Source: Limnobaculum xujianqingii
GTDB taxonomy: Bacteria; Pseudomonadota; Gammaproteobacteria; Enterobacterales; Enterobacteriaceae
DNA length: 64,000 bases
Assembly: GCF_013394855.1 (NCBI RefSeq)
Contig: NZ_JABMLK010000001.1
Location: 1,631,501-1,695,500 of the forward strand
Direction: 5' to 3'
Shown piece by piece: positions 12,882-64,000 of the stretch. The position numbers were made by a program, and so were the translations under genes. The notes beneath the pieces were generated by a model. That model worked only from the letters and a program-made list of their open reading frames with translations. It was not told the origin of the DNA and made no database searches. The first letter of the stretch is position 1. Each line of letters begins with the position of its first letter.

Positions 12882-12913
12882 TAGAGGCATCATTTATTGG
12901 AGTTTTGTTATTT

Positions 12914-12961
12914 ATGCACCATATACCGTTTTTCTTCGCTTTCTTTTTTAACGTCCCCTGA
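12914..12961 (+). CDS. pheL: phe operon leader peptide
   Basis: A 15-residue peptide, [15 protein letters not shown], with six phenylalanines in seven consecutive codons; E. coli PheL ([15 protein letters not shown]) has seven. Translation through the Phe codons measures charged tRNA-Phe. Stalling at those codons favours an antiterminator and lets transcription reach pheA. A GGAG ribosome site lies upstream. The segment between the peptide stop and 13020 contains the sequences expected to form the alternative stems. Confidence 0.95.
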   Translation: [15 protein letters not shown]

Positions 12962-13020
12962 CTGGGAGGCGATTCGTCCGTGGCTTGGAAACAAGCAGAG
13001 AGAAAGCGAAGACGAACATT

Positions 13021-13046
13021 AAAGCCTCCCACCGGGGGGCTTTTTT
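13021..13046 (+). terminator. pheA attenuator terminator
   Basis: The stem AAAGCCTCCC/GGGGGGCTTT with an ACC loop is followed by a T run, between pheL and pheA. It is the terminator form of the Phe attenuator. GGGAGGC at 12964-12970, at the end of pheL, can pair with its left arm, consistent with alternative folding. Confidence 0.88.
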
Positions 13047-13081
13047 ATTGGATAAGATAAAAAATAAGGTAAGACGACACC

Positions 13082-17206: not shown

Positions 17207-19663
17207 TCACCCATTATGAAAACGTTTAGTTTTACGGGTGGGCAGCGCATTTGCCGGATCGTCAGGCCACACATGTTTTGGGTAGCGGCCCTTCATCTCC
17301 TTTTGCACCTCTTTATAAGCGCCCTGCCAAAAAGCGGCTAAGTCCTGAGTAATTTGCAGTGGTCGGTGCGCCGGGGATAACAACTCAACCACCAGAGAAA
17401 CCCGACCATCAGCAATCACCGGAGTTTGTTTTTCACCAAACATCTCTTGTAAACGAACCGCCAGCACTGGCGGCCGTTCGCTATCGTAACGTATTGGCAA
17501 ACGAGAACCGGTTGGTACGCAATAGCTAACAGGCAATTCACTGTCCAGACGCTGGCGCTGCTGCCAGTCCAGCTTACGATTTAATGCTTCAGAAAGATTA
17601 ACCTGTTTAAGCCCCTTAATATCCCTGATGCCTTTTAGTGAGGGTAATAACCATGCCTCTAGGGTTTCCAACAGTTCACTGTCATCCACCAACGGCCACG
17701 AATACTGAGGCAGCCACTCCCTCGCCCGCTGAATACGAGTACGCAGTTGCATCGCCTCCTCATCCCAGGCTAAAGCAGAAATACCCTGAGTTCTCACCCA
17801 CTCCAGTAACGCAGCATGCAGTTGCTCTTCAGAAGGTTTACTGAGCGGTTGGGCTTTTAGTATCAGACGACCAATCTGTTGACGCTGCCAGGCTCGTAAT
17901 GTTCCTTTCTCTTCATCCCACTCAATAGCGCTCTGTTGTGTAACTAACTGCGGCATACGTTGAGCTAATGCCTCCGGCTCGATTTTAGCTGCTAACAATA
18001 TACGTGCATCAGGGCTATTAGCCCCTTGCAATAACGAAGCCGCAATCAACCACTCAGAGCGCCACAGGCCATCATCCGTATCAATTTGAGCCCCCATACC
18101 GTTAGCCAGCAGATAACGCCCTTCTTCTCCGCGCTTTTGTGCAATACGATCGGCAAAGCCCGCTGCCAGCAAAAAAGGTATTTCATCACTGTCCGGATGG
18201 GTATTGCGGAATTTTAATCGCTGCCCCAGCTGACGAGCGCGTTTTGTCCATGCAGCCTGAGGATGCAGTAACCAATAACTAATATCTTTACTGCCGTTTC
18301 TTGGTGGCTCTTCCACAATGGCGGTCAATAATAAAGCGGTAGCTAAAGATTCTGGCTTTTGTTGCGCCGCATAAACCAGCATCGCTGCTAATCGCGGTTC
18401 ACAGCCGGTTTCCGCCATCTGGCGACCAACCTGAGTCAGATTTCCCTGTTCATCGACAGCGCCAAGTTGTATCAATAGCCGTCGGGCGGCAGCCAGAGAA
18501 GTGGAAGGAGGTAAATCCAGCCAGCGCATTTGCTGAATATCACGACAACCCCATTGCAGCAATTCCACGGTCAGGCCGGATAAATCACTCTGCATAATCT
18601 CCGCCTCACCCTGCTCTGCAGCACGTTCCGCCTGCTCACGGGAAAACAGATGCCAACATGCACCGGCAGATAGACGGCCTGCACGTCCGGCACGCTGGGT
18701 CATGGAGGCTTTAGAAATACGTTGAGTGATTAAACGCGTCAGTCCGGTTCGCGGATCGAAACGAGCTACTCGCTCAAGACCACTGTCGACCACCAGATTA
18801 ATACCGTCGATAGTCAGACTGGTTTCAGCGATATTAGTCGTCAGCACAATTTTTCGCCGACCAGGTGGAGAAGGCGAAATCGCTTTTTGTTGTTCAGCTA
18901 AAGACAGTGCGCCATACAGCGGACAAAGATCGATATCATCCGTCAGGCTACCGGATAACAAATCACACACCCGACGAATTTCGGCTACACCTGGCAAAAA
19001 CAACAGCATTGACCCTGAATGTTGATTCACTACCTGCCTGACCGCCTGCGCCACCTTATCTTCAAAATATCCACTGGCAGGTAACGACAGGTAGTGACGT
19101 TCAACGGCAAAACTACGCCCTTCAGCTGAAATCACCGGCGCATCCGGCAAAAATTGTTGCAGTCGCTGGTTATCCAGCGTTGCCGACATAATCAGCAGCT
19201 TCAAATCATCCCGCAGACCGCTCTGAACATCTAATAATAAGCTAAGGGCTAAATCCGCCTGTAAACTACGCTCATGAAATTCATCCAGAATCACCAGAGA
19301 AACATCTTCCAGCATCGGATCCTGTTGCAGCATCCGGATCAACACCCCTTCCGTCACCACTTCCAGACGAGTCGCCGGCCCGCTAAGACTCTCAGAACGC
19401 ATCCGATAGCCAATACATTCCCCCACCGGCTGATTCAACTGCTGAGCTAACCGCTGCGCCACACTGCGAGCCGCCAAACGACGCGGCTCCAGCATAATAA
19501 TACGCCCCGACAGCCAGGACGATTGCTCAAGCAACCTCAACGGCAACCAGGTCGATTTCCCCGCACCGGACGGTGCCTGCAACAATACACAAGGCGAATG
19601 CTGCAAAGCATCAAGCAATGGCTGAAGAACTTCACTTACCGGCAGAGACACACATAACCTCAA
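17207..19663 (-). CDS. hrpB: ATP-dependent RNA helicase-like protein HrpB
   Basis: 818 residues, the normal size. DEAH-family motifs are in order: Walker A APSGAGKST, LEPRRLAARSVAQR, TEGVLIRML, DEFHERSLQADLA, SATLD, TNIAETSLTIDGI and QRAGRAGR. A helicase-associated domain and the HrpB-specific C-terminal domain follow. The biological role is poorly defined; it belongs to the DEAH/RHA helicases. It is divergent from sfsA. The E. coli neighbour ligT, normally between hrpB and sfsA, is absent. Confidence 0.95.
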   Translation of the reverse strand: MRLCVSLPVSEVLQPLLDALQHSPCVLLQAPSGAGKSTWLPLRLLEQSSWLSGRIIMLEPRRLAARSVAQRLAQQLNQPVGECIGYRMRSESLSGPATRLEVVTEGVLIRMLQQDPMLEDVSLVILDEFHERSLQADLALSLLLDVQSGLRDDLKLLIMSATLDNQRLQQFLPDAPVISAEGRSFAVERHYLSLPASGYFEDKVAQAVRQVVNQHSGSMLLFLPGVAEIRRVCDLLSGSLTDDIDLCPLYGALSLAEQQKAISPSPPGRRKIVLTTNIAETSLTIDGINLVVDSGLERVARFDPRTGLTRLITQRISKASMTQRAGRAGRLSAGACWHLFSREQAERAAEQGEAEIMQSDLSGLTVELLQWGCRDIQQMRWLDLPPSTSLAAARRLLIQLGAVDEQGNLTQVGRQMAETGCEPRLAAMLVYAAQQKPESLATALLLTAIVEEPPRNGSKDISYWLLHPQAAWTKRARQLGQRLKFRNTHPDSDEIPFLLAAGFADRIAQKRGEEGRYLLANGMGAQIDTDDGLWRSEWLIAASLLQGANSPDARILLAAKIEPEALAQRMPQLVTQQSAIEWDEEKGTLRAWQRQQIGRLILKAQPLSKPSEEQLHAALLEWVRTQGISALAWDEEAMQLRTRIQRAREWLPQYSWPLVDDSELLETLEAWLLPSLKGIRDIKGLKQVNLSEALNRKLDWQQRQRLDSELPVSYCVPTGSRLPIRYDSERPPVLAVRLQEMFGEKQTPVIADGRVSLVVELLSPAHRPLQITQDLAAFWQGAYKEVQKEMKGRYPKHVWPDDPANALPTRKTKRFHNG

Positions 19664-53084: not shown

Positions 53085-54283
53085 CTATATGTTCACCGAA
53101 CGAGCTTTACGAGTACTGAAAACAATCAATGGAATAGCGATGAAATAAACCACCACCACCGAAAGCCAGATAGCACCGGGCCAGTCCTTTTGAACCACAA
53201 AATAAAAGGTTGAGAACGCCAGCGGTCCAACAACAGAAGCCAGACTCACCGCCGATGCCAGCACCCCCTGAAACTGTCCCTGACTGTCACGATCAACCTG
53301 TCTGGTTGCCAGCGCCTGAAGTGCTGGAGAACCAATGCCGCCGAGGGCGAACAACGGCATAATAGCGAAAACCATCCAGCCCTGGTTGATAAACGCCAAA
53401 GTGATCAGCGCCACGCAGGAACAGGCAACACCAACTAACACGGCTCCCCGCTCCCCAAATAATCTGGTCGCCGGGCCGGGCAACAGTGCCTGTACCAATG
53501 TCTGGCAAATACCAAAGGCACCCAGAGACAGGCCAATCCATAAACCATTCCATTGGAAAGTATCAAATCCCCACAATGCCCAGCAGGTACCATAGACTTC
53601 ACCCGTGGCGCTTAAAATAAAGAACACCAGAACGATTGGCAGAATTCCTTTCATAGAAAAAGCCCAGCGTAGTGGACGTAGCGGATTAAGCGCCGCCAGA
53701 TTAATCTTTTGACGGCTCGGCACCCGCGACTCCGGCAGAACAAATAGTGCCAGCAAAAAATTACAGGCGTTTAACAGTGCAGCAGCAATAAAAGGAAGCC
53801 GTATCCAGTAATCACCCAACAACCCGCCGAGAACCGGCCCGATAATAAAACCAATGCCAAACATGGCGTTAAACAAACCAAAGCGACCAGCTCGCTGATC
53901 CTCTGGCGTAATATCAGTAATGTAAGCCATGGCGACAGAAATGTTAGCACTGCTCAACCCGGCAATAGCACGGCCATAGCACGGCCAAGTAATAGCATCC
54001 AGAGATGGGGAGCGAACGCCATAATCACATAGTCAATTGCCGCTCCGGCTAAGGAAATCAGCAGCACCGGACGCCTGCCAAGATTATCGCTCAATGCACC
54101 AAGTACCGGCGCGAAGACAAACTGCATTGCCGCGTAAAGCGCGGTCATAATACCGATATAGGGCGCGATATCCTGAGTATGCGTTACCTCTTCGAGGAGG
54201 CGCGGCAAAATAGGAAAAATAAGACCGATACCCGCAGCATTAAGGCAAATTGCAGCGAAGATAACGATAAGGGGTTTATTCAT
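53085..54283 (-). pseudogene. TetA-type major facilitator efflux gene, broken by an 11-bp duplication
   Basis: Two reading frames together make one 12-helix drug/H+ antiporter. 54283-53954 encodes helices 1-3 with LGALSDNLGRRPVLL (motif A) and ends LLLGRAMAVLLPG. 53957-53085 continues with SSANISVAMAYITDIT and RFGLFNAMFGIGFIIGPVLG. At the junction the sequence ATAGCACGGCC is repeated directly (53965-53975, 53976-53986). Removing one copy restores LGRAIAGLSSANIS. The partner TetR gene diverges upstream. As it stands the transporter is not made as one chain. Confidence 0.88.
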
Positions 54284-59800: not shown

Positions 59801-60775
59801 TCACGAGGAAATCCCTACCATCGCGATTATGTTTTGCTTGAAGTCCTCATAGACTGCTCCTTTCCTTAACTGAAGAGCCTTTAGAGCATAGAAGACGTTG
59901 GTGGTCGGTGACTCTAGCTTTGCTTTATCAATGTCCAACTTTGAGACATTTACGACAGTCCAACACTCACGATAGCCGTCTTTTTTGGCCTTCTGGTGGC
60001 TTTTCTCAGCTTCGCCAATTCGGTTATGAATGTTGGACACATCCGTACCACTCTTCACTTCAATTGCTAAGATTCTTCGTGAAGATTTGTCCGGCATTAC
60101 TTCACGAATGACGATATCCGGATCGGCTGCAAACTCCACCCACACATCCCGGCCGCTCATGTTTTTTATTTCAATTGCCCCACGTGTGGCGTTGATAATT
60201 GCAGGCCTGAGAATCTCTTCAATGACGTCAAAGACGTCCACGATGCCTTGCTGGCCAAGTTTATTGTTCACTCCTCCCCGCATCTGCGGTCCAACAGTTA
60301 GCAAGGTCAGGTCATCCAGGAGTCCAATGCTCAGGTCTTTTGCTTTTAAGTTACCCACAAGATGCGAGGCCGCGTTACAAAGAGCGACGCAGAGCTCCTC
60401 CATTTTCACCACAGAGCGCGGATTCAGGCGACCACTAACCTCCATACATTTCATGGAAGCCACGCCAAACTCCGAGCCATAAAACTCTTTCTGGCTATAG
60501 CCGAGGAGAAGGCGGTAGTAGCCGAGCAGATGCGGGTTCGCGTGCAGAATTGCTGGCACTGCGAAGACAAGTTCTCCTCTTAATCCCCTAGCGGCGAGCG
60601 CTTTGAGGTCTTTTGCCGGAACGTATTTGGACAGCTCTGCATCAATGGTTGGAACGGCTAACTCGGATACCGTTTCCAAGAGAGCGTCCTGAAGCCAGAC
60701 GTTTCTAAATTCCTGAAGCTTCAGAGAGAACGAGACCTGAAGCTCAGGCAATGGGAAAGCGAGGTCCTTCTTCAA
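59801..60775 (-). CDS. XcyI-family type II restriction endonuclease (predicted CCCGGG)
   Basis: 324 residues, about the XcyI/Cfr9I length. The PD-(D/E)xK site is seen as D220 in AADPDIVI, with E239 and K241 in ILAIEVKSG. The N-terminal half is mostly helical. XcyI relatives cut C^CCGGG. It overlaps the methyltransferase gene by 4 bp (ATGA), so the methylase is made first. Specificity is inferred from the family, not shown. Confidence 0.85.
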   Translation of the reverse strand: MKKDLAFPLPELQVSFSLKLQEFRNVWLQDALLETVSELAVPTIDAELSKYVPAKDLKALAARGLRGELVFAVPAILHANPHLLGYYRLLLGYSQKEFYGSEFGVASMKCMEVSGRLNPRSVVKMEELCVALCNAASHLVGNLKAKDLSIGLLDDLTLLTVGPQMRGGVNNKLGQQGIVDVFDVIEEILRPAIINATRGAIEIKNMSGRDVWVEFAADPDIVIREVMPDKSSRRILAIEVKSGTDVSNIHNRIGEAEKSHQKAKKDGYRECWTVVNVSKLDIDKAKLESPTTNVFYALKALQLRKGAVYEDFKQNIIAMVGISS

Positions 60776-61656
60776 GCAGCCGATATCCTTACTACGTTAT
60801 GGAAAATTCCTCCAAGCCGCTCTACCGCAAGGTCTACGTATGAAGGGTTGAGCTCAACACCAGCATACTTCCTGCCTTCTTCATTGCAGACCAAACCAAC
60901 TGTACCCGCGCCGAAGAAAGGGTCTAGCACGAAATCACCCGGTTCGGTAGAGGCCTTGACGCAAGGCCGTACCAGCTCAGGAGGGAATGTCGCGAAGTGA
61001 GCGCCTGCGTATGGCTTAGTGTTCACATTCCAGACAGTTCTTAAATTGCGCAAGCCGCCGCCATCAGCAACCTGTTTAACTGCATCTGAATTGTAAAAAT
61101 ACTTCTCCGACTTGCTGAACATGAAGAGGAACTCGTGCGAACGGGTCGGCCGGTCCTTTACACTTTCAGGCATGGCATTCGGCTTGTTCCAAATAATGTC
61201 GGTTCGTAGATACCAACCATCATCCTGAAGAGCGAAAGCCAAGCGCCAAGGGATGCCCATCAGATCTTTAGGTTTGAGGCCTTCGGGAGTGTCCGGCCTA
61301 ACAGCCATGGCCCTTGCCGGATTTTTTTTATCCGCCGCACGATAGCCGCGATTTCCGCTTGTATAGCCATCACCGATGTTGATCCACAGCGTTCCGTCAT
61401 CAGTAAGCACGCGTCTTACTTCAGAAAATACTGCAACTAGTTTCTGGATGAATTGAGGCATAGTCAGTTCGAGACCGATTTGATCGTCGATACCATAGTC
61501 TCGAAGCCCCCAATATGGAGGGGAAGTTACAACGCAGCGCACGCTATTGCTTGGCAAGCGTCTTAATACTGTGACCGCGTCACCTTCAAAAATTGTGGAG
61601 GCGTCTAGGTTTAATTGCGCTTCGCGAGTAACTTTTTCAACAATTGGGTTATTCAT
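60772..61656 (-). CDS. Type II DNA methyltransferase, beta-class, probably N4-cytosine
   Basis: 294 residues. Motif IV is TSPPYWGLRDYG (SPPYW, typical of N4-cytosine enzymes); the AdoMet-binding motif I is at the C-terminal end, DPFFGAGTVGLVCNEEG, so the order is beta-class. It resembles M.Cfr9I/M.XcyI, which modify CCCGGG. It protects host DNA from the overlapping endonuclease. AGAGG precedes ATG 61656. No separate controller gene is seen. Confidence 0.9.
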   Translation of the reverse strand: MNNPIVEKVTREAQLNLDASTIFEGDAVTVLRRLPSNSVRCVVTSPPYWGLRDYGIDDQIGLELTMPQFIQKLVAVFSEVRRVLTDDGTLWINIGDGYTSGNRGYRAADKKNPARAMAVRPDTPEGLKPKDLMGIPWRLAFALQDDGWYLRTDIIWNKPNAMPESVKDRPTRSHEFLFMFSKSEKYFYNSDAVKQVADGGGLRNLRTVWNVNTKPYAGAHFATFPPELVRPCVKASTEPGDFVLDPFFGAGTVGLVCNEEGRKYAGVELNPSYVDLAVERLGGIFHNVVRISAA

Positions 61657-62105
61657 ACTTGCCTCTGGCCTGCGTGCGCGGCGATTCTACACTATTTTCA
61701 AATTCTTTGCATTTGTTTTCGACCCCAATACCAATAGTTTCAATAAGAGATATCAGCAAAAAAAATGATATCTAATTTTCTCGTAAAAAGTCATAAATGT
61801 ATATGAACTCGAATTACTGTTATCAACAGTTTGAGTTCATTCTGATCCACCGGCAGCTTCGGATAAGACGAAATCTTTCACGAAGGGCAGCTCTTGGCCG
61901 GTTGGCCACTCCTCTGAGCGACTAAAAAAGCAGTAGATCACGACAGCGGGTGCGCGGTGATAATTTTCGATTGCTACCGCCTTCCCAAGCTGGTGTATTG
62001 GTCTATGCTGAGGCGGCAAAAGGCCACTGCCTGATCTGGATTTTAGGACGACGTGCGCCAAATGTAAGGCCGCCTTGGCCTGCTCCTACCTTCCCCTCTC
62101 CACGG
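61657..62105. other. Gap between the methylase and the AAA ATPase, with an inverted repeat
   Basis: 449 bp. ATGAACTC (61803) and GAGTTCAT (61833-61840) are perfect arms with further ACTGT/ACAGT pairing inside, giving a near-palindrome of 38 bp. The right half (61840-62105) has open frames on both strands but no recognised protein; one minus frame ending GGSE could be a gene fragment. Promoters for the divergent defence genes must lie here. Confidence 0.5.
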
Positions 62106-64000
62106 ATGCGAGACATGATTGAATCGATCACCCTCTCCGGCATAGCGACCTACAGCCCCGTAACCCCTGAAGCGATTCAAAACCTGAAGGCTTTGAACTA
62201 CTTCTACGGTGCAAACGGAGCAGGTAAGACAACGATCAGTAGGCTGATAAACAACCCAGCACTATCAACTGCCTCCAAGGTCACTTGGGTGAAGGGCAAT
62301 CCAATTCCGGCACTGGTCTACAACAACGATTTCATCGCGGCGAATTTCACTGATTCTAAACAGTTCAAAGGTGTGTTCACGCTGGGGCAGGCCGAGCAGG
62401 CGCAACTTGATCACCTGGAAGAGCTCAAGAAGGAAAGAGACCGCCACGCGCTTTTCAAAACCAAAGCTCAAGAAAACCTGAATGGCCCGGACGGCAAGAG
62501 CGGGAGGATTGCCGAAAAAAATGCCTTGGAAGAGAAGCTAGTAGGACGGTGCTGGGAGCAAAAGCAGAAGCACGACGATGAGTTTCAGGGGGGCTTTCAA
62601 AGGTCTAAGAAATAACCGGGAGGCCTTCAAAAATAGGGTCTTACAGGAGAGCAAGAATAACACCTCCCAGCTGGTTGATATCGAAGACCTGCGCAAACGT
62701 GCAGATGTACTTTATGGTGACGCACCATTACCCATGAATGCTGTCTCCAATCTAGACCTGTCCCGTTTGGTCGCGCTTGAGCAAAACCATGCCCTGAGCA
62801 AGAAAGTGGTCGGTAAAGAAGATGTCAATGTATCTGCGATGATCCAGCACTTGGGAAACAGTGACTGGATAAGGCAAGGTATGAAGTACTTGGGCCATAC
62901 CGACGATGACTGTCCTTTCTGTCAACAGAAATTACCGCATGAATTCGAAAAAAGCCTCGAAGATTACTTCGACGAAACATTCGAAGCTGATACTCGAGCC
63001 CTTTCGATGTTTCGGGATACTTATAACGACTTAGCAGATACTCTGTTAGCCCAGGCTCAAACAGTCCTGACCACGAATTGCTCGCATCTAGATAAAGATA
63101 AACTTGATCTTGAGTTGCAGGCCCTAAATGCAATCATATTGGTGAACAGGCAACGCATTGACCACAAGGTGGCTAGCCCTAGTACTGAAGTGACGCTAGA
63201 AGGTCTGACAGAAATTTCGCTTAAAATTTCTGAGCTAATCGAGGCGGCCAACCTCAAGGTATCTGAACATAATCGTCTTATTTCGGGATTCTCCGTCGAG
63301 CAAAACAAGTTAACAGATGCGGTGTGGCGATATCTAATTGATGTTGAGCTTAAAGACACTCTTGCTGATTATACTAAAGATATTGACCGTATCGGCAAAG
63401 CAATTGACGGCATAACTGCGAGCATGGATAGGGCAACAGTAGACATATCCACAGCTGACGCAGAAATTGCAAAGATTGAAAATTCGCTGACAAGTGTGAG
63501 ACTTACTGTCGTTGCGATCAACAAAATTCTGAAAGACTTTGGATTCCGAAGCTTCTCGCTAGATCCTGCATGTGCCGACAATTCATATCGCCTGATCAGA
63601 AGCGATGGAACTGATGCTAAAGCAACGCTCAGCGAAGGCGAAAAAACCTTCGTTACTTTCCTGTACTTCTATCATTTGCTTTGGGGAAGCATCTCGACCT
63701 CAGGCATCAGCACTGATCGAATAGTCGTCATCGATGACCCGGTTTCAAGCTTGGATAGCGATGTGCTGTTCATCGTGAGTAGCTTGATCAAGAAGCTTTT
63801 TCACGAAGTTCGCCAGAAGGGGAATAACCTAAAACAGATCTTTGTTCTGACCCATAACGTGCACTTTCATAAAGAAATCACCTTTAATCCCCAGCGAACT
63901 GGAGATGCGTCTATTAAGGATGAGACGTTTTGGATAGTACGCAAGCCCGATCATTTCTCGAAAATTGAAGGTTTTGAAAGTAATCCCATCAAGACGTCCT
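62106..64000 (+). pseudogene. RloC-like AAA_13 ATPase, frameshifted and cut by the window edge
   Basis: 62106-62615 encodes a P-loop start: YFYGANGAGKTTISRL, then PALVYNNDFIAANF, and ends after EFQGGFQRSKK. The next frame carries on without a break: GLRNNREAFKNRVLQES, a zinc-hook-like CPFCQQKL (from 62911), TLSEGEKTFVTFLYFYHLL (signature), RIVVIDDPVSSLDSD (Walker B) and LTHNVHFHKE. Dropping one G from the six at 62588-62593 joins them as EFQGAFKGLR. RloC is an anticodon nuclease with this ATPase and hook; its nuclease domain would lie beyond 64000. Start 62106 or 62115. Confidence 0.82.

What the first reader, a model, noticed from the sequence alone, without database searches (positions are those of the whole stretch)
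62106..64000. RloC-like ATPase disabled (or switched) at a run of six G
Two frames make one AAA_13 protein with Walker A, a CxxC hook, ABC-type signature, Walker B and H-loop. The break falls exactly in GGGGGG at 62588-62593; five G would give continuous, family-like EFQGAFKGLR. Homopolymer slippage could be a phase switch, a real loss of a costly suicide nuclease, or a sequencing error. The CxxC hook plus linkage to a restriction system points to RloC-type anticodon nuclease rather than a plain SMC-like protein.
Basis: partly seen in the sequence, partly recalled or inferred. Interest (0 to 1): 0.72.

Follow-up and report, generated by a model that had tools for sequence, protein, structure and literature searches.

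The report
Broken RloC gene with SSB-like tail
A bacterial self-sabotage gene of the RloC kind (an enzyme thought to cut the cell's own transfer RNA when a virus attacks) lies broken at two places in this genome, and its intact close relatives share a feature I found no report of: their last amino acids copy the tail that the cell's single-strand DNA-binding protein uses to dock its partners.

Summary
In detail: a frame change at the six-G run 62588-62593 splits an AAA_13 protein with Walker A, CPFC, LSEGE, Walker B and H-loop. Past the window the same gene changes frame again, inside the nuclease site, between the R-x3-E and the His of the RloC triad. Two breaks, only one at a G run, argue against a phase switch. 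Relatives (closest 89% DNA identity, Pseudomonas simiae) carry the motifs that define RloC: 19 of 19 checked have RRILE-x37-SH and CPFC. The family call is right, but XcyI linkage is not kept (0 of 25 relatives' flanks). Recent real decay is likelier than sequencing error; reads would decide.

The unexpected part is the C-terminus. In one well-supported Pseudomonadota clade of RloC, 17 of 18 distinct tails end in PF after an acidic, fast-changing linker, typically DxD(I/M)PF, like the host SSB tip DFDDDIPF. None of 53 other homologues or AAA_13 genes end so, and 3 of 815 background frames do, one of them acidic, with SSB's own tail. I propose that this clade docks its nuclease on SSB-binding repair and replication proteins. 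Binding is untested.

The parts
61899..62105 (+). upstream stretch that travels with the gene (homology to relatives L006-L009 starts here and runs to 10 bases past the stop)
   Evidence: blastn of L004:1-9000 against 25 relatives, block L004:3400-6057
62106..62612 (+). N-terminal piece of the RloC-family gene (169 aa)
   Evidence: AAA_13 5.8e-25; PADLOC PDC-S06 model PDLC04890 2e-48
62208..62231 (+). Walker A, GANGAGKT
   Evidence: sequence; conserved in A1
62588..62593 (+). run of six G at which the open frame changes (first break)
62578..64000 (+). second piece, in another frame; runs past the window to L004:5668 (530 aa in all)
   Evidence: AAA_13 4.3e-129, PDC-S06 model PDLC04890 1.6e-205
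62911..62922 (+). CPFC, the CX2C zinc-hook motif
   Evidence: sequence; 19 of 19 relatives
63628..63651 (+). ABC-type signature LSEGEKTF
   Evidence: sequence; LSEGE conserved
63721..63759 (+). Walker B and D-loop, IVVIDDPVSSLDS
   Evidence: sequence; conserved
63847..63858 (+). H-loop LTHN
   Evidence: sequence; conserved
60772..61656 (-). neighbour: N6/N4 DNA methyltransferase of an XcyI-type restriction system; not part of the RloC unit
   Evidence: PF01555 8.8e-54; not found in relatives' flanks
59801..60775 (-). neighbour: XcyI-type restriction endonuclease; not part of the RloC unit
   Evidence: PF09571 3.9e-109; not found in relatives' flanks

Best explanation
The gene is a horizontally acquired member of the RloC family of suicide anticodon nucleases, dead in this genome as sequenced because it is broken twice: once after Walker A, before the zinc-hook motif, and once inside the nuclease site. 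It belongs to a clade of RloC that ends in an acidic linker, predicted disordered, and a copy of the SSB C-terminal tip. How intact copies most likely work: the Rad50-like ATPase with its zinc hook senses DNA ends and holds the HEPN-type nuclease silent (known for other RloC proteins); the SSB-like tip docks the protein onto SSB-binding repair and replication proteins (inferred), so that it waits at forks and breaks and fires when a phage degrades or takes over host DNA; the nuclease then cuts tRNA and stops translation (tRNA cutting known for other RloC proteins, inferred here). Shown here: family, motifs, two frame changes, tip conservation, one clade, constraint kept until recently. Inferred: tip binding, recruitment, tRNA cutting by this clade, and that the breaks are real.
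For: AAA_13 and PDC-S06 matches of all three pieces in order (the third piece is under Pfam's cut-off). 19 of 19 relatives carry CPFC and RRILE-x37-SH, inside the published RloC definition R-X3-E-X36-52-H, Ser often before His, 658-897 aa (PMC2610378, passages). Second break between the E and H of that triad. Tip: 17 of 18 distinct tails end PF; position -6 is acidic in 17 of 18; entropy 0 to 0.3 bits at the last two positions against about 2 to 3 bits along most of the linker; the one exception, a MAG, encodes ASDIPF in another frame. The window genome's own SSB ends MDFDDDIPF. 0 of 55 rows (53 genes) outside the clade end PF; 3 of 815 background frames do, one of them acidic, with SSB's tail. 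Clade support 100/100, branch 0.82. Linker pLDDT 25-37. The IPF end, the Asp side chains and Phe172 of SSB-Ct matter for binding (PMC10143822, passages). dN/dS of the broken copy against L008 is 0.12-0.17 by piece, within the range between intact copies, so the disruption is recent.
Against: No binding or activity data for this clade. Position -3 is I, M or V in 14 of 18 distinct tails but T, S or A in four; Asp at -4 is lost in 6 of 18 (V, G, N or R instead), among them the near-copies ending VVPF. The clade is one origin, so tip conservation is one evolutionary event plus retention. Reads are not available, so a sequencing error at either break is not excluded. The structure model is weak (pLDDT 67, pTM 0.36), so the nuclease fold rests on sequence motifs. 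RloC proteins with tested activity (Geobacillus, Acinetobacter baylyi) were not fetched for a direct alignment, and the one annotated RloC that I aligned (L132) lacks the standard triad.
Confidence: 0.66

Rival explanations
1. Sequencing or assembly error: the gene is whole in the cell and one or both frame changes are errors.
For: The first break is at a homopolymer, a usual place for such errors; the rest of the gene shows the same constraint as intact copies; the 19 relatives have no internal stop.
Against: Two breaks in one 2.4 kb gene, the second not at a homopolymer, against 2 broken of 133 sister frames over about 140 kb and 0 of 129 in the reverse comparison (frames with under 70% matched at 65% identity were dropped there, so worse breaks could be missed). 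The assembly has 3 contigs and is listed as 100% complete.
Confidence: 0.25
2. Phase-variable gene: the G run changes length and switches the nuclease on and off.
For: A G run at the break; suicide genes are costly.
Against: The second break would keep the gene off whatever the run does. Six G is short, and such runs are common (33 runs of six or more G or C in 517.3 kb). In the 13 relatives measured, the longest G run anywhere in the gene is 4 to 6.
Confidence: 0.03
3. Programmed frameshifting makes one protein from the frames.
For: Overlapping frames at the G run; constraint is kept on both sides.
Against: 19 of 19 relatives use one frame; the second junction has no run longer than three bases; two such events would be needed.
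Confidence: 0.02
4. The tail is not a docking tip: the acidic tail and its end act in cis, for example by covering the DNA-binding face of the ATPase head (auto-inhibition), or set protein stability.
For: The tails carry net charge -10 to -16; silence before activation is needed for such a nuclease.
Against: Auto-inhibition by charge alone would not need the terminal PF, nor the match to SSB in register, including Phe at -7 in the enterobacterial copies.
Confidence: 0.2

Closest known systems
RloC (Davidov and Kaufmann 2008; PMC2610378, PMC3874168)
   Same: ABC-ATPase split by a coiled coil with CX2C; R-x3-E-x37-H with Ser before His; 742-839 aa in 18 of 19 relatives; rarely tied to restriction systems
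   Different: Acidic linker and an SSB-like C-terminal tip in this clade; the window's copy is broken at two places
PrrC anticodon nuclease
   Same: ABC-ATPase plus C-terminal Arg-Glu-His nuclease; PADLOC PrrC model matches part of the second piece (1.6e-9)
   Different: RloC is about twice the size and has a zinc-hook arm; no type I restriction genes beside this gene
PDC-S06 (PADLOC phage defence candidate)
   Same: Best model PDLC04890: 2e-48, 1.6e-205 and 1.5e-24 for the three pieces
   Different: No function stated in the library; the match ends 75 residues before the tip of the third piece
SSB C-terminal tip (SSB-Ct)
   Same: Acidic residues then (I/M/V)-Pro-Phe at the very C-terminus after a disordered linker; own SSB ends MDFDDDIPF
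   Different: Carried by a nuclease-ATPase, not by an OB-fold protein; positions -3 and -4 looser

Membership tests
RloC | ABC-ATPase motifs: Walker A, signature, Walker B/D-loop, H-loop | tested here: met
   All present, over two frames in the window, conserved in relatives
RloC | CX2C zinc-hook motif in a coiled-coil insert | tested here: met
   CPFC in the window copy and in 19 of 19 relatives; long helices in that region of a weak model. CxxC is not specific: 30 of 31 homologue rows have it too
RloC | C-terminal R-X3-E-X36-52-H | tested here: met
   RRILE-x37-SH in 19 of 19 relatives (L025 dropped, cut by its contig end). In the window copy R/E and H lie in different frames
RloC | 658-897 aa | tested here: met
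   18 of 19 relatives 742-839 aa; L022 is a 584 aa frame
RloC | tRNA anticodon cleavage, zinc response, activation by DNA ends | not testable with these tools
   Needs biochemistry; reported for Geobacillus and Acinetobacter RloC
PrrC | Linked to a type I restriction system | tested here: not met
   Neighbour is an XcyI-type II system, not found in relatives' flanks. Type I genes were not searched for in the relatives
PrrC | 341-416 aa, without the zinc-hook insert | tested here: not met
   742-839 aa with CPFC in 18 of 19 relatives
SSB C-terminal tip | Acidic residues and (I)PF at the extreme C-terminus | tested here: met
   17 of 18 distinct tails end PF; 14 of 18 have I, M or V at -3; 17 of 18 are acidic at -6
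SSB C-terminal tip | Binds SSB-interacting proteins | not testable with these tools
   No complex prediction or assay available
Phase-variable homopolymer locus | A run whose length alone decides the frame | tested here: not met
   Second break elsewhere

The most novel reading that the evidence does not exclude
A clade of RloC suicide tRNA nucleases has evolved a mimic of the SSB C-terminal tip and uses the host SSB interaction network as its address and perhaps its trigger: it sits with RecO, ExoI, PriA, RecQ or HolC at forks and breaks, and is released or activated when a phage displaces or inhibits SSB partners or floods the cell with its own single-strand binding protein. This would be an anti-phage nuclease that joins the SSB network from the SSB side.
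Probability: 0.45. Interest if true: 0.8.

Novelty: new variant of a known kind. Interest (0 to 1): 0.58.

Why it matters
RloC is reported to respond to DNA breaks, but how it is brought to them in the cell seems open. A conserved SSB-like tip gives a concrete, easily tested answer for one clade: a short C-terminal removal should separate recruitment from nuclease activity. It also adds a new kind of link between bacterial immunity and single-strand binding proteins; [quoted passage not shown] The broken copy itself is probably an ordinary case of a costly defence gene being lost after transfer.

Tried and rejected
Phase switch at the G run: rejected because a second break keeps the gene off. 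Programmed frameshift: rejected, 19 of 19 relatives use one frame. Restriction system and RloC as one unit: rejected, no XcyI gene at E 1e-5 in the 25 relatives; flanks there are at most 6 kb, 1.5 kb for two loci, and under 0.5 kb on one side for two viral contigs. CxxC as proof of RloC: weak alone, since 30 of 31 homologue rows have CxxC; the triad decides. My triad pattern did not ring in some more distant rows (L101, L109, L132 none). Generally poor assembly: 2 of 133 sister frames broken over about 140 kb, 0 of 129 in the reverse direction; an earlier pass with three sister genomes gave 123 single-frame rows and 1 broken (rows repeat across the three genomes). One of the two (G000:C1 about 1602500) may only be a changed N-terminus.

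Solved structures by sequence: nothing with the second piece; with an alignment profile mainly ATPase heads and coiled coils (5da9, AriA, Rad50, SMC). Fold search: Rad50, SMC, AriA and Lamassu heads among the best, with low TM and large rmsd; the model is weak, so it counts little. E. coli genomes: no close copy of 62106-64000 (megablast). Plasmids by DNA: three records with 60-80% pieces. Sister genus genomes: 0 of 3 hold the gene.

Literature: RloC with DIPF, 0 papers; DDDIPF with anti-phage, one DinG review (passages); RloC with SSB and zinc-hook, two papers not opened; SSB C-terminal, mimic and anti-phage, one paper not opened; [quoted passage not shown] Listings only: (beyond the papers named here). 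PMC12322248: passages on RloC, untested there. The library lacks most subscription papers and all bioRxiv preprints, so novelty of the tip means 'not found here'.

Full report
WHAT IS THERE. The window lies in a genome of 4.76 Mb in 3 contigs, listed as 100% complete, probably of the family Enterobacteriaceae (inferred from several 0.4-0.6 Mb genomes in its family, and recalled taxonomy). The pieces match AAA_13 at profile positions 4-153 and 150-660, so they are neighbouring parts of one protein. Beyond the window (locus L004) the frame changes again near L004:5605-5625, and a third piece matches positions 662-713 (5.2e-7, under Pfam's cut-off) and the PDC-S06 model (1.5e-24). The second change falls between the Arg-Glu and the His of the nuclease triad.

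WHICH FAMILY. Twenty relatives were found in genome contigs. Nineteen were checked; L025 was dropped because its contig ends inside the gene. All 19 carry CPFC and RRILE-x37-H with Ser before His, and none has an internal stop. Davidov and Kaufmann define RloC by ABC motifs, a CX2C coiled-coil insert, R-X3-E-X36-52-H (often Ser before His) and 658-897 aa (PMC2610378, passages read). Eighteen of the 19 are 742-839 aa; L022 is a 584 aa frame. The HEPN survey places the RloC nuclease domain in the HEPN superfamily (PMC3710099, passages). PADLOC's best models are PDC-S06. A Streptococcus phage protein annotated as RloC (L132) aligns along the ATPase, although its own triad is changed (R-x3-D, no His in the aligned place). 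So the family call is sound; activity of this clade has not been shown.

WHY TWO BREAKS MATTER. A switch at the G run could not turn on a gene that is broken again downstream. Runs of six or more G or C occur 33 times in 517.3 kb of this chromosome, 5 kb of which read N. Against the sister genome G003, 131 of 133 frames are in one frame in the window's genome, about 140 kb (frames of at least 120 aa, at least 65% identity and 70% matched; others were dropped). One of the two broken ones is an efflux-type gene in this window; the other may be only a changed N-terminus. In the reverse direction 129 of 129 are in one frame. Two breaks in one 2.4 kb gene are more than this background, which favours real decay, but without reads an error remains possible. 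The three pieces show dN/dS of 0.12, 0.13 and 0.17 against L008, in the range of intact pairs (0.22, 0.08 and 0.24 for L006 against L008), and private nonsynonymous changes are not in excess (27 of 63 private changes in the window copy, 18 of 39 in L008). The breaks, if real, are thus recent.

ORIGIN. DNA identity is highest to Pseudomonas simiae (88.9%), then Pseudomonas sp. 30_B and P. chengduensis; in L006-L009 the homologous block runs from 207 bases before the start to 10 bases after the stop. A tree puts the window's middle piece beside L008, with modest support (82/79). The unit seems to move alone: neighbours differ in the relatives (by eye), and XcyI endonuclease, methyltransferase and the downstream 271 aa frame were not found in the 25 relatives. 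None of the three other genomes of the genus that were searched has it, and 6 of 392 genomes of the family, the window's included, have a match at 1e-60. In the window's genome it sits near genes that resemble mobilizable plasmids (trb genes, replication protein) and two integrase-like frames (recognised by eye).

THE TAIL. The third piece ends ...EADGSDQDIPF. The same genome's SSB ends ...PPMDFDDDIPF. I then compared tails: 20 relatives of the close clade plus the window give 18 distinct tails; 17 end PF, all 18 have P at -2, position -6 is D or E in 17, -4 is D in 12, and -3 is I, M or V in 14 (T, S or A in the rest). The preceding linker changes in letters and length; tails carry net charge -10 to -16, and the linker is predicted disordered (pLDDT 25-37 from residue 741 of L008). 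The one tail without PF (L009, a metagenome bin) encodes ...ASDIPF in another frame. Enterobacterial copies end RFDQDMPF or GFDQVVPF, with Phe at the place of SSB's Phe172. The IPF end, the Asp residues and Phe172 of SSB matter for binding to partners (PMC10143822, passages).

CONTROLS FOR THE TAIL. Of 815 frames of at least 100 aa in 49 fetched chromosome stretches of four related genomes, 3 end PF and only one of these is acidic; it ends PMDFDDDIPF, that is, it has SSB's tail (the four genomes repeat genes). Of 55 rows outside the clade, none ends PF; two genes were fetched twice, so these are 53 genes. I left partial matches and other repeat fetches out of that count, and for the weakest AAA_13 matches the longest frame of the fetched stretch was taken, which may be another gene. 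The tree holds 37 relatives and the window's middle piece; the tipped rows lie in one clade (100/100, branch 0.82) whose only other rows are L009 and the middle piece, which does not include the tail (these two make the tree's count of 3 label changes). L016 (partly masked) and the near-copies L124, L134 and L135, all tipped, were left out of the tree.

HOW IT LIKELY WORKS. RloC of A. baylyi is activated by a DNA-break inducer even without restriction genes and cuts tRNA-Glu and tRNA-Gln; linear DNA sustains the activity of the Geobacillus enzyme (PMC3874168, abstract and discussion). A tail that copies SSB-Ct would let the enzyme compete for, or ride on, SSB-binding repair and replication proteins at breaks and forks. 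That is the step I infer. A rival is action in cis by the acidic tail. AbpAB is activated by phage single-strand binding protein, and its authors name other defences like it (abstract page of PMC10732053), so this biology is a plausible trigger, but here the mimic is on the defence protein itself.

WHAT IS NEW. RloC is known, and the broken copy is ordinary. Searches of the held library found no paper that joins RloC or anticodon nuclease with the SSB tip (two papers that hold RloC and SSB were not opened); subscription papers are mostly, and bioRxiv preprints wholly, not held. I rate it a new variant of a known kind.

Noticed in passing
53085-54283 (-): An MFS efflux-type gene (resembles tetracycline-type pumps, by recall) also lies in two frames; sister genome G003 has it in one. 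Described only.
   Followed up: partly
59801-61656 (-): Apparently intact XcyI-type restriction endonuclease and DNA methyltransferase, overlapping by 4 bases, divergent from the RloC gene.
   Followed up: partly
L004:8748-18903 (beyond the window): Genes resembling plasmid trbJ, trbL and a replication protein, plus two integrase-like frames (L004:15524-16813 and 17893-18903): probably an integrated plasmid-like element.
   Followed up: partly
L004:11899-12648: Frame related to a hypothetical protein that sits between a TrlF-type ATPase and a NACHT protein on Azotobacter plasmid pAcX50c: possibly a defence-linked gene.
   Followed up: no
L129:1001-3190: A second broken copy of a more distant RloC-family gene, in four matched pieces and unannotated, on an Acinetobacter nosocomialis plasmid.
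   Followed up: partly
L132: A Streptococcus phage protein annotated as RloC lacks the standard triad (R-x3-D and no His in the aligned place).
   Followed up: no
12913-13049 (+): Phenylalanine leader (Rfam RF01859, 93.5 bits), the only Rfam match over its cut-off in the window.
   Followed up: no
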